15,000 bases of DNA from assembly GCF_000091045.1 (NCBI RefSeq), contig NC_006686.1, positions 940,001 to 955,000 of the forward strand, in the 5' to 3' direction. Position numbers and translations under genes: made by a program. Numbering within the stretch: position 1 is the first letter of the stretch; each line of letters starts with the position of its first letter. The notes below the pieces were generated by a model. The model saw only the letters and a list, made by a program, of their open reading frames with translations. It had not been told where the DNA came from and did no database searches. The DNA is from Cryptococcus deneoformans JEC21. Lineage: Eukaryota > Basidiomycota > Tremellomycetes > Tremellales > Cryptococcaceae. Shown here piece after piece: positions 2,521 through 14,516 of this stretch.

Positions 2521-3339
2521 ATGTCCTTCTTCTCTGTGCTCTTCTTCGTCCTTGTCGCTCCGTTAGTATTCGCAAACACGTTGCAATACAAGCTTCACCA
2601 CCGATTCGTGCCTGTTCAAGCTAGCGCAGGATCGCCGCCATCTTTCAGTCCGTTGGGCCATCTCGTTCTGTCATCAGCAGAAGACGGTTCACCAATCAAC
2701 CCTCAGATTATTCCACTGAGTACGACCGCACAGGTAGAGCCGCAAGAGACGGCTGATAGTGCAGGGTGGTATCAAGTGGGGTTACAGGTGAAAGAAGGCG
2801 ATAGTGATGACGATAAAGACTGGTTGATTGCCAGTACCCGTGCTGTAAGTGTCTACTAAAGCCCGTACATCGATTCACTATTGAATACTCATAAAACACA
2901 TACATATGTAGAGCTACTTGGCAGGCCCTCTGTTGGTCAAGTTGCACATGGAGGGTACTCAATTAGTTTCCCTTTCGGTGCACCCTTTGACTTCTCGATC
3001 TTATGATGATTCATTATCCACTGTGTCCCTGCCACAAGACATCTCTATTTTCCAATTAACGATCATGGACTCACAGAAAACAAGACCGTTGGTGCTTCCT
3101 CGATTCACCTCGCGAAAGCAATAGTCAGGCTAACATGCATCGGCTGACTTCCCTTTAGACCTCCGATGGGCACTTCCATGATGATCGATAATGATACAGG
3201 CGCTCCTGTCACGCCTCCCCCCGAAAAATCATTTCTTCAGAAATACTGGATGTACATTGTAGGCATCGCGCTTTTCTTTGCCGCACAGATGGGGCCTGAA
3301 GAACCTCGTAATCAAAATAAAGGCGGAAGCGGGAAATGA
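2521..3339 (+). CDS. EMC10: ER membrane protein complex subunit 10 (EMC10-like)
   Basis: EMC10 is a lumenal, membrane-anchored subunit of the ER membrane protein complex, which inserts tail-anchored and multipass proteins. Exons are 2521-2844, 2912-3087 and 3159-3339, giving about 226 residues. Residues 1-18 form a signal peptide (MSFFSVLFFVLVAPLVFA). A beta-rich lumenal domain follows. The end carries the family signature PPPEKSFLQKYWMYIVG, which leads into a short membrane segment and a polar tail. Intron 1 has a good GTAAGT donor. Intron 2 has a clear TTTAG acceptor, but its donor is uncertain. GTTGGT at 3088 keeps the frame. A GC donor at 3118 would also keep it and add 10 residues. Using GT at 3124 would create a stop. 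ATG 2521 is chosen because the signal peptide begins there. The gene converges on the lactate dehydrogenase gene, with 105 bp between the two stops. Confidence 0.85.
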
Positions 3340-11392: not shown

Positions 11393-11395
11393 TAA
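11393..11395. repeat. Left target-site duplication TAA
   Basis: TAA directly precedes the left CACTG end and matches the TAA that directly follows the right CAGTG end. Three base pairs is the size expected for CACTA elements. The empty site would read GCGCTAAGGC. Confidence 0.7.
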
Positions 11396-11408
11396 CACTG
11401 TGTGCGCG
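11396..11408 (+). repeat. Left terminal inverted repeat
   Basis: CACTGTGTGCGCG is identical, in reverse complement, to the right end. The first subterminal motif starts only four bases further in. Confidence 0.85.
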
Positions 11409-11411
11409 AGC

Positions 11412-11822
11412 GCATATCGGAATCGCCCGATATGCAACGATATGCCACGTAACGATGGCATAACGGAAACAATTTTGACGCACCTGATATTCAAGCATAA
11501 TAAAATCTACAGCTTCCGACATGCCCCGCGTGGCAACATATCGGCCTCATATCGGGGACAGTTCATTTATGCACGCATCTCAAAATGTACCTGTTATGTT
11601 TGGTTCTGCTGCATATCCTAACTGTCCGATATCATACGATTCGCAGAATATCGTAATGCTCGCTATCCACCCGTTATGCCTGCATATCGGATATGCTTAT
11701 ATGCTCTCTTTTAAGCTACACATCGGACGACTCGATATGCAACCATTATACTTGCATATTGGCTGCATATTCAACTAAATGGCAGTTATGCAGCGTGTCG
11801 AATGTCCGTTATGCACATAACG
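11412..11822. repeat. Left subterminal motif array (CGWTATGC)
   Basis: Eight exact copies of CGATATGC or CGTTATGC, or their reverse complements, start at 11412, 11428, 11438, 11458, 11672, 11682, 11733 and 11807. Many one-mismatch copies lie between them, such as CATATCGG near 11536 and 11548. Several are paired back to back: GCATATCGGATATGC (11682-11696) and CGTTATGCACATAACG (11807-11822) are palindromes. This resembles transposase-binding arrays of CACTA elements. Confidence 0.75.
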
Positions 11823-12095
11823 AATCGCTTTCAAAACTGCTTTTGCGCTGCTATATACCATTGCCACTCATTCCCTTGCTCAACTGTATGTTCTCAATGC
11901 TTGGTGATATCCATGAATGCATAACAATACTACTATCGCCTAACCCTACTCCTCCTGATCTACCTACCATGTGCCGACTACCTTCGTTGTTCTACGGTCG
12001 TAGTGTATAACGTACCTCAACGGTAAGTACTCACCTATCGCATATGAATCATCGACAGTAAACCAACCATATGTTCCTAGCTTGAGCTGCTGAGA

Positions 12096-12494
12096 CTAAG
12101 AATCAATCAGTTGAACTTCGAGACAGACATTTGTCATTGGAGGCGGCTCACGAAATATGTACGTGACGATTGGTAGACACGCCAGCCATTGACCTTCACT
12201 GTGTGCCACATGTCAGCATGAGACTGGCTGTTGTTGATGGGATAGAATACCGGAAAGAAACCAAAAGCTTACTAAAACATGCCCATTTCTGCCCTTCTCT
12301 AGACATATATCAGCCCTGTGTATTAGGGTGTTAGCACCACAAGGGGGAGACGGGTAGCTGCAAAAGAAATGTTGGACTTACAACAATAATCCTTCCCTTA
12401 TTGTATACTGCCTACAAACGATCAGCTCATGCTCCTTTTAAGATCTTGTATTTTAGTCGCCGCTCTAAATGCTTACCACAATATTATTGACCAT
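12096..12494 (-). CDS. Candidate small spliced gene inside the element, unknown function
   Basis: Four minus-strand exons can be joined in one frame: 12494-12477, 12411-12382, 12298-12273 and 12198-12096, ending in TAG. Donors are GTAAGC, GTAAGT and GTAAGC. Acceptors are TTTGTAG, GTCTAG and CACACAG. CTGAT or CTGAC branch-like sites lie 5-17 nt before the AG, and introns are 65-83 nt. The product would be about 58 residues, starting MVNNIVAVYNKG. Its last exon reads in part EGQWLACLPIVTYIF and then REPPPMTNVCLEVQL. I recognise no family. The ATG is only the first available, and the frame is open further upstream. The exons are short, so chance assembly remains quite possible. It could be cargo, a decayed host fragment or noise. 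Confidence 0.25.
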
Positions 12495-12523
12495 ACAAAA
12501 TATCTTACAGCTTGTTATTATGG

Positions 12524-12554
12524 GAAGCCTTGAAGCCTTAAGCCTTGAAGCCTT
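12524..12554. repeat. Short tandem repeat, unit GAAGCCTT
   Basis: Four head-to-tail units of 8, 8, 7 and 8 bp follow one another, and one unit has lost its G. It sits just upstream, on the minus strand, of the candidate spliced frame. Confidence 0.65.
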
Positions 12555-13000
12555 GAGACAATGTGATAGAAAATAGTAAATGGTTAAGAGGAATAGTGAA
12601 GTAGTTATGGGTTGCGTTTGGAAGTTGGGGCTGTAAACTGCGTTGCGCTGCTTTCATATATACCTTAGAGGGTCGCCGAGTTCTGACAGATGAAGCTCAA
12701 TTCCAATGGATGATGGTGTGCATTATTTTACTGATGAATTTCACAAATTAGTAGAAGCAATAATATGAGGCACATCTGTAATGCTGTGAGGTCAGTTTGC
12801 AAAGCGCAGGCGCACACTTCGTTTCACGACTGACCTTGAGCCGGGATTTGGGATTTGAGTTGTTCTTCTCTGTTCTTTGGTCTTCGGGCGGCAGACGGAG
12901 GAGCAGGTGACTGAGGTTCTTTTGGAAGCTGGCGGAACAGCCAAACACGGATAATTATACGACTCCTACTGTCGCACTCTCGCCAAACGACAGATTTGCA

Positions 13001-13024
13001 ATGAGCTATTATATGAGCTATTAT
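13001..13024. repeat. Perfect 12-bp tandem duplication
   Basis: ATGAGCTATTAT occurs twice head to tail. It lies in the interior of the insertion, with no clear coding context. Confidence 0.6.
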
Positions 13025-13167
13025 AGAGCAGGAGTGCCATGCCGACAGTGGCAATCTCGGCGTTCGAAACAGGTGGCTGACAGATCTCCACCCTTTCGTC
13101 CGAGGCCTAATCAAACAAGCCTCCACCTTCCATGTCCACAGGTTCCACGGCGCACCATCCCAACTCT

Positions 13168-13398
13168 TCACTGGAAAACACGTAAGTAGCTTGCTTGATT
13201 TTTCTTTTCTTTCCTCATCGCTTGATCAACATCCCTCTTCTTCTTGCCGAGCGCTTGATCAACGCACCCATTACCTCGACGGACCTCCCGTATCCTTACA
13301 CTTGTATTGTGTATTAAGGTAGTAGTAGTGGTGCCACCTGGCTGCTGAATTGTGACTGGCTGACATGAATAAATACCAGATGAAGAAGATGCAAGCAA
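13168..13398 (-). other. Weak minus-strand open frame with a 33-bp internal duplication
   Basis: A frame of about 75 codons ends in TGA at 13168-13170 and stays open a little upstream. It has a Ser/Thr-rich start and then two related basic units, VDQALGKKKRD and VDQAMRKEKKN. At DNA level the units share CGCTTGATCAAC (13219-13230 and 13252-13263), 33 bp apart. No ATG opens the frame and no domain is recognised. It may be an exon or remnant of element cargo, or chance. Confidence 0.2.
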
Positions 13399-14221
13399 TG
13401 TGGAAGAGCTCGTAAGAGATTGTACGACAGAAGTATATACGTTTTATGGGTGGTTGGCTACAGTACATACGTGCATGGGATTATCATATCATCACATTAT
13501 TTCAGATTAATTAATTATTTATGTTCTTCGTTATCTTATCATGAAATGTTGTTGCTATTTTGTCTGCGCCTGCCGGCATGCAAGGGTGAACTACCAGCCA
13601 AGAGGACTCCCTTGACTATCGGGATTATACCTTCATGTAGGGATGGTGTTGATGGGGCGGAAGAAAGGGTGCGTAGCTGGTAGTATAATTATGTAGGTAT
13701 GCGGTAATAGGGAGATGAACGTAGCGCGCGTAGTAGTAGGCTGGCATATATTAGTGGTGGGTACCGGGGTATGAATACTACGCGGTGTAGCTATTATGTA
13801 GTACTGGATGTAGCCTATAGCTCGCTATGGACGGTGCCCTTCAATTATGGTGGTGGTGACAACTACCGATGTGAATGAATGACGATACCATCGTCGATGT
13901 AAAACACGTCTCATCTTCAAGAAAGTGAGAGTGATGAGATTTAAGGCCGTTTTAATGTATGATAGTTCTGTACTATACTATATTCTTCTGGCCATGATAA
14001 TCCTAATATCGATCAATAATGCCTCCTGGTAGCTTTTACTACATACTACGTAGGAGTTAAGTGTCTTATCTCGTCGCATTCTACTGCTGTGGTACCAAGG
14101 AAGCCCAAACTGACTCATTATAATGCTCAAAACACCAAATATTCATCATGGATGCACAAGGTGATCTTTGCAAGCTGGCGAGATTAAAAGATTTCGAAGC
14201 TGTCCTTATGCTACATAACGG

Positions 14222-14463
14222 AGCATATTATGTAAATTTTAATATGCTGCATATAGATTTCTAATATGCATTGATATCCCGCATTTCAGATTCTCGATAT
14301 GCTACTTACAGGTCATCGGGGCATATCGAATCCATTGATATGCTGCAGATCACGAGGTCTCACCAAAAAACCCGATATCCATCGTTATGTAAGATTTCAA
14401 TGCATAACAGGTGCCTCGTTTTCCCAGCATAACGGGCCCATTTCGGCTTTTTTTCCGTTATGC
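14222..14463. repeat. Right subterminal motif array (CGWTATGC)
   Basis: Exact CGATATGC or CGTTATGC motifs (either strand) start at 14295, 14321, 14427 and 14456. One-mismatch copies lie around them, including ACATAACG, TGATATGC, CGTTATGT and GCATAACA. The array mirrors the left one and ends about 40 bp before the right terminal repeat. Confidence 0.75.
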
Positions 14464-14500
14464 TGGATAAGTGGGGATATCCGAAAATTGAATATGCAAG

Positions 14501-14513
14501 CGCGCACACAGTG
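14501..14513 (-). repeat. Right terminal inverted repeat
   Basis: CGCGCACACAGTG is the exact reverse complement of the left terminus. Beyond 13 bp the two ends diverge, although both carry GCATAT a few bases further in. Confidence 0.85.
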
Positions 14514-14516
14514 TAA
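14514..14516. repeat. Right target-site duplication TAA
   Basis: TAA follows the right CAGTG end and matches the left flank. Confidence 0.7.

What the first reader, a model, noticed from the sequence alone, without database searches (positions are those of the whole stretch)
11393..14516. A 3.1-kb CACTG-ended transposon with perfect ends and TAA duplication in a Cryptococcus-like genome
Seen directly: 13-bp perfect inverted ends (CACTGTGTGCGCG), TAA on both sides, and motif arrays just inside both ends. Known: this combination defines the CACTA (EnSpm/CMC) superfamily. Inferred: this is a non-autonomous copy needing a transposase from elsewhere. Intact ends and an undamaged duplication suggest a fairly recent insertion.
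Basis: partly seen in the sequence, partly recalled or inferred. Interest (0 to 1): 0.75.

Follow-up and report, generated by a model that had tools for sequence, protein, structure and literature searches.

The report
Cut-down CACTA-type fungal jumping element
This is a real but ordinary short DNA transposon in a Cryptococcus genome that carries no recognisable enzyme of its own; it has one near-identical second copy and one decayed relative, and no element with matching ends that could supply the enzyme was found in this genome.

Summary
Window 11396-14513 (3118 bp) is a transposable element with perfect 13-bp ends (CACTGTGTGCGCG) and a 3-bp TAA duplication. A second copy on contig C9 (3104 bp, about 99% identical) has exactly the same ends and a different 3-bp duplication, CTT, so boundaries and duplication are established, not coincidental. 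Both ends carry arrays of one motif, GCATAWCGG: 14 in the left 430 bp, 7 in the right 330 bp, none between. No recognisable protein is encoded. This is the anatomy of a non-autonomous CACTA (EnSpm) element; the published C. neoformans element CNIRT6 also starts CACTG and makes 3-bp duplications. The expected autonomous partner was looked for and not found: the paired end motif occurs only in the two copies and one decayed relative on C3, and the transposase-bearing CACTA elements whose ends could be recognised end CACTATGGGACC. All 13 differences between the copies lie in the right 39%, which suggests recombination or gene conversion. Empty sites in other strains could not be examined. New member of a known kind, possibly already catalogued in Repbase or GenBank.

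The parts
11393..11395 (.). target-site duplication TAA, left
   Evidence: read directly; the C9 copy has CTT here
11396..11408 (+). left terminal inverted repeat CACTGTGTGCGCG
   Evidence: the C9 copy begins at exactly this base
11412..11814 (.). left subterminal array, 14 copies of GCATAWCGG (at most 1 mismatch) in both orientations
11396..14513 (.). whole element, 3118 bp, no recognisable protein
12685..12889 (.). internal segment about 71% identical to C10:148284-148489, which lies about 160 bp from a stretch that matches the C3 relative
13581..13840 (.). internal segment that shares pieces (78-94% identical) with a dispersed repeat at C5, C3 (two places) and C11
14213..14463 (.). right subterminal array, 7 copies of GCATAWCGG (at most 1 mismatch) in both orientations
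14501..14513 (-). right terminal inverted repeat
14514..14516 (.). target-site duplication TAA, right
   Evidence: read directly

Best explanation
A non-autonomous, cut-and-paste DNA transposon of the CACTA (EnSpm) type. Its ends (13-bp inverted repeat plus GCATAWCGG arrays) are the binding and cleavage sites of a transposase supplied in trans, and each insertion duplicates 3 bp of target. Shown: two near-identical copies with identical boundaries and different 3-bp duplications, arrays at both ends, no recognisable coding capacity. Inferred: cut-and-paste movement, the role of the arrays as transposase binding sites, and the source of the transposase. That source is either an element with matching ends missing from this assembly (lost, or present only in other strains), or a CACTA transposase in this genome that tolerates different ends.
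For: Second copy with the same ends and a CTT duplication. Motif arrays at both ends only. No Pfam family above its cut-off in the 22 ORFs of 40 aa or more that touch the element (9, 10, 3). Published CNIRT6 of C. neoformans begins CACTG, makes variable 3-bp duplications and encodes a CACTA-clade transposase (PMC12810828, passages). PF02992 transposase loci exist in this genome (6 matches, 5 over the cut-off); one lies in a 6310-bp element with 26/26 inverted ends and a CTT duplication.
Against: No element with matching ends and a transposase was found. CACTGTGTGCGCG with up to 1 mismatch has 10 places (2 for the reversed control pattern); 4 are the ends of the two copies, 1 the C3 relative, and none lies in the seven 10-kb stretches around the transposase loci. 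The convergent motif pair occurs only in the two copies and the C3 relative (5 places; the reversed control pattern gave 2 rows). The CACTATGGG elements have different ends, and none of the seven stretches holds a GCATAWCGG array (1 to 5 scattered matches each). PMC12810828 found no mobilisation of clearly non-autonomous copies in its C. neoformans isolates (passage). So the trans-mobilisation step rests on analogy.
Confidence: 0.88

Rival explanations
1. A PIF/Harbinger-type element: these duplicate a 3-bp TWA target, which TAA fits (target preference recalled, not from a call).
For: TAA at the C4 copy; Harbinger elements are reported in Cryptococcus (PMC7175516, passages).
Against: The C9 copy is flanked by CTT, and the ends begin CACTG.
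Confidence: 0.03
2. A non-autonomous member of another CMC group (Mirage, Chapaev or CNEST type) or of the KDZ group.
For: CAC at the ends is shared across the CMC group (recalled).
Against: CNEST makes 2-bp TA duplications and begins CACGG, and KDZ1 makes 8-bp duplications (PMC12810828 section 8). Both copies here have exactly 3 bp.
Confidence: 0.05
3. The family is cross-mobilised by the resident CACTATGGG-ended CACTA elements of this genome (a more specific form of the best explanation).
For: Transposase_21 frames without internal stops lie at C7, C9 and one C12 locus; the C7 element has a 3-bp duplication.
Against: The terminal 13 bases agree at only 8 positions (counted by eye), and the subterminal motif array is not shared.
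Confidence: 0.2
4. A segmental duplication or unique sequence that only looks like a transposon.
For: Only two full copies.
Against: The similarity stops exactly at the inverted ends, the flanks differ, and each copy has its own 3-bp direct repeat.
Confidence: 0.01

Closest known systems
CNIRT6 (Cryptococcus neoformans CACTA-superfamily element)
   Same: CACTG start, 3-bp duplications of variable sequence (PMC12810828, passages)
   Different: CNIRT6 is about 7.5 kb, has 24-bp inverted repeats and encodes a transposase; this element is 3.1 kb, has a 13-bp perfect repeat and no recognisable protein. CNIRT6's end sequence beyond CACTG and its subterminal motifs were not available to me, so a direct match could not be tested.
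CACTATGGG-ended CACTA elements of the same genome (C7:903741-910050; C12:131304-137437; C12:161630-167751)
   Same: CACT start, inverted repeats, 3-bp duplication at C7, Transposase_21
   Different: other terminal sequence (CACTATGGGACCCGCGGCGGC at C7), no GCATAWCGG array
T1 and T3/CNIRT4 of C. deneoformans
   Same: DNA transposons of the same species group (PMC8670703 and PMC3744442, passages); T1 recalled as short and without a transposase
   Different: The passages of PMC3744442 Table 2 show at least 3 entries labelled T1 and 6 labelled T3, against two full copies of this element; those entries may be fragments.

Membership tests
CACTA (EnSpm) superfamily | inverted ends beginning CACTA or a close variant (CACTR) | tested here: met
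   CACTG, perfect over 13 bp at both ends of both copies; a variant form, precedent CNIRT6
CACTA (EnSpm) superfamily | 3-bp target-site duplication | tested here: met
   TAA at C4, CTT at C9
CACTA (EnSpm) superfamily | subterminal arrays of a short motif in both orientations (recalled as typical) | tested here: met
   GCATAWCGG 14 + 7, none between, shuffled maxima 4 and 2
CACTA (EnSpm) superfamily | transposase of the CMC clade encoded by the element | tested here: not met
   no Pfam family above cut-off in the 22 ORFs of 40 aa or more; hence non-autonomous at most
CACTA (EnSpm) superfamily | an autonomous partner with the same ends | tested here: not met
   none found in this assembly; other strains could not be searched
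PIF/Harbinger | 3-bp TWA duplication (recalled) | tested here: not met
   CTT at the C9 copy
CNEST type (CMC supergroup) | 2-bp TA duplication, CACGG ends | tested here: not met
   3-bp duplications, CACTG ends; definition from PMC12810828 section 8
KDZ | 4-8 bp duplications, inverted repeats of 139-241 bp in C. neoformans | tested here: not met
   3-bp duplications, 13-bp perfect ends; definition from PMC12810828

The most novel reading that the evidence does not exclude
An orphan CACTA family with its own end code (CACTGTGTGCGCG plus GCATAWCGG arrays) that moved recently in a genome which no longer holds, or never held, its own autonomous element, so that its transposase comes from another strain through mating or from a resident CACTA element with unlike ends. 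The one-sided divergence of the two copies would record recombination between copies.
Probability: 0.35. Interest if true: 0.4.

Novelty: new member of a known kind. Interest (0 to 1): 0.22.

Why it matters
It adds a short, well-delimited pair of ends to the few CACTA-type elements described from Cryptococcus, where DNA transposons are an experimentally shown source of mutation (PMC12810828, passages). A defined, enzyme-free element with a sharp end code is a convenient reporter for asking which CACTA transposase acts on which ends. Beyond that it is ordinary.

Tried and rejected
Rejected: the TAA-flanked copy as chance (second copy); Harbinger, CNEST and KDZ membership (duplication length or sequence); C7:415150 as a further element end (two scattered motif matches in the 3 kb held, no second end matching more than 11 of 20 bases there); the 9 hits and 40 other than the two copies as element ends. 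All 9 were scanned: 1 to 3 motif matches in each locus of 2.4 to 3 kb, one of them there by construction. The reversed control patterns gave 3 and 5 hits, so 9 is about what chance gives. Two of the 9, C5:1506647 and C7:1346527, lie near contig ends.

Led nowhere: Rfam (0 matches in the window). ORFs of the element (79 of at least 25 aa) against 9 stretches: hits at E <= 0.01 only to the C3 and C10 stretches, none to the seven transposase stretches. Searches for a text on the ends of T1 and T3. Two PNAS papers on C. deneoformans transposons are not held. A homology search with the C7 transposase (108 proteins at E <= 0.001 among the 7996 candidates scored, a capped list) confirmed a Tnp2 family but gives no DNA ends.

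Literature: none of the titles and abstract beginnings listed, nor the passages seen of PMC12810828, PMC1636069, PMC7175516, PMC8670703, PMC3744442 and PMC3618354, describes this element; the other listed papers were not opened. Of PMC12810828 I also read section 8. Repbase and the GenBank CNIRT records were not available, so it may already be catalogued.

Corrections: an earlier count said 6 indels; the count is 5.

Full report
What is there. The window is bases 940001-955000 of contig C4 of a genome of 19,051,922 bases in 14 contigs. That fits Cryptococcus serotype D, 19.1 Mb and 14 chromosomes (PMC7175516, table seen in passages); I take it to be C. deneoformans JEC21 from recalled assembly size, not from a call. 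The sequence reads TAA, CACTGTGTGCGCG, 3092 bp of interior, CGCGCACACAGTG, TAA. The perfect repeat is 13 bp; after three mismatched bases it resumes for six more.

Is it more than chance? Perfect 13-bp inverted pairs alone are common by chance in a window of this size (1.4 per shuffled window), but with adjoining 3-bp direct repeats they are not (0.013 per window, 150 shuffles). The stronger evidence is the second copy. C9:202541-205644, minus strand, matches the element from first to last base and no further. Its flanks are unrelated and carry CTT on both sides. Two copies with identical boundaries and different 3-bp duplications are the signature of transposition.

End structure. One motif, GCATAWCGG, fills both ends: 14 places in the left 430 bp, 7 in the right 330 bp, none in the 2358 bp between and 3 in the rest of the window, at up to one mismatch; 200 shuffles of each end gave at most 4 and 2. 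It unites the two words that the k-mer count showed as enriched, CATATCGG and CATAACGG. The boundaries 430 and 330 were chosen after looking at the sequence. Subterminal arrays in both orientations are typical of CACTA elements, where in maize they bind an element-encoded protein (recalled).

Coding capacity. The longest stop-to-stop frames that touch the element are 147 aa, which crosses the left border, and 133 aa. The 22 ORFs of 40 aa or more that touch the element were scanned, two of them in their longer stop-to-stop form: none has a Pfam family above its curated cut-off; two have weak matches below it, E 0.033 and 0.046. The window has no Rfam match. Introns were not modelled.

Relatives in the genome. 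A search with the whole element gave 11 places: the two copies, three pieces of one place on C3 (1108422-1109762), and internal pieces at C10, C5, C3 (two places) and C11 (two pieces). The C3 place at 1108019-1109767 is an old relative. It begins CTT, CACTGTGTGCGTG, and shares the last 33 bp, a stretch of the right end (2894-3065), a stretch at 673-912 and bases 4-47 of the element at 81-91% identity. Its other end is damaged: the terminal CAGTG is lost (read). About 840 bp inside it belongs to another repeat with good matches on C9, C13, C2 and C8, so it was interrupted after insertion. A stretch on C10 holds one piece that matches the C3 relative (84%) and, about 160 bp away, a piece that matches this element at 1290-1494 (71%). 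It has no motif array and no matching end; I read it as a fossil of the same family. A further internal piece, about 2186-2445, resembles a dispersed repeat found at four other places.

The missing partner. CACTGTGTGCGCG with up to one mismatch has 10 places, against 2 for the control pattern read backwards: 4 are the ends of the two copies, 1 is the C3 relative, and the other 5 carry no array, 0 to 2 scattered matches in 3 kb each. CACTGTGTGCG exactly has 6 places, control 2: the 4 ends, the C3 relative and C7:415152, which has no array. The convergent motif pair CATAWCGG N0-30 CCGWTATG occurs only in the two copies (both ends of each) and the C3 relative: 10 rows, each place counted on both strands, 5 places; control 2 rows. 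That search demands exact 8-base words, so a diverged array would be missed.

The genome does have CACTA transposases. PF02992 has 6 matches, 5 above the cut-off, and the Plavaka family 2 pieces at one locus. Of the seven 10-kb stretches fetched around them, three show an element with long inverted ends, all beginning CACTATGGGACC: C7 26/26 with CTT on both sides, C12 25/26 and 24/26 without matching duplications. For the other four no pair of ends was recognised. None of the seven stretches holds a GCATAWCGG array; they have 1 to 5 scattered matches each. K-mer counts on the C7 element show only a weak enrichment of another word, CAAGCCG, at its ends. So the likely mechanism, mobilisation in trans, lacks its agent in this assembly. 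A diverged partner, a transposase outside these Pfam families, or one in another strain is not excluded.

Age. The copies differ by 8 substitutions and 5 indels, and 2 positions are N in the C9 copy. All 13 differences lie beyond position 1914 of 3118; if differences fell evenly the chance is about 4e-6, or 5e-4 for substitutions alone. The dividing point was taken from the data and indels may cluster in simple sequence, so these figures are rough. Partial gene conversion, or recombination between older variants, is the simplest reading. Identity over the left 1.9 kb agrees with a young family.

Surroundings. The C4 copy lies upstream of a minus-strand gene with a weak arginase-family match (22.2 bits, cut-off 22); its probable start is about 0.46 kb away, judged by eye from the translation. 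The C9 copy ends about 180 bp before the first ATG of an open frame that has no Pfam match itself; the next long frame on that strand matches the major facilitator superfamily, so the two are probably exons of one transporter gene. Other genes in the window include an FMN-dependent dehydrogenase and a polysaccharide deacetylase.

Known kinds. CNIRT6 of C. neoformans is about 7.5 kb, starts CACTG with 24-bp inverted repeats, makes variable 3-bp duplications, and its transposase falls in a CACTA clade with 79% bootstrap (PMC12810828, passages). That makes CACTG plus 3 bp a sound basis for filing this element with CACTA as a non-autonomous member. The same paper reports no evidence of mobilisation of clearly non-autonomous copies in its C. 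neoformans isolates (passage), which does not support movement of such elements there and leaves this species group open. CNEST (2-bp TA, CACGG; section 8) and KDZ (longer duplications and repeats) do not fit. T1 and T3/CNIRT4 are known mobile DNA transposons of C. deneoformans (PMC8670703, PMC3744442, passages); their sequences were not at hand, so I cannot exclude that this element already has a name.

Verdict. Observation confirmed, interpretation supported, novelty modest. The two points worth keeping are the absence of an element with matching ends and the one-sided divergence of the copies.

Noticed in passing
G000 C3:1108847-1109691 (inside the C3 relative, L025): A separate repeat of about 840 bp sits inside the old C3 relative, with matching pieces (79-93%) on C9, C13, C2, C8, C7, C1 and C12; part of it matches in inverted order, which suggests inverted ends.
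   Followed up: partly
window 13581-13840; L027, L028, L029, L030: A dispersed repeat of roughly 300 bp occurs in the element and at four other loci on C5, C3 (two) and C11. The core CTATCGGGATTATAC is the same in four of the five, with one change in L029. Its nature is unknown.
   Followed up: partly
window 13310-14417 against C9:202541-203730: All 13 differences between the two copies lie in the right 39% of the element.
   Followed up: partly
G000 C7:903741-910050, C12:131304-137437, C12:161630-167751: CACTATGGG-ended CACTA elements of 6.1-6.3 kb with Transposase_21; the C7 copy has 26/26 inverted ends and a CTT duplication.
   Followed up: partly
G000 C5:1506647-1506675 and C7:1346527-1346555: Two near-identical short stretches (CACTGAGYGATCGNTTGTATCCGTTATGC) about 1 kb from contig ends, probably a subtelomeric repeat.
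   Followed up: no
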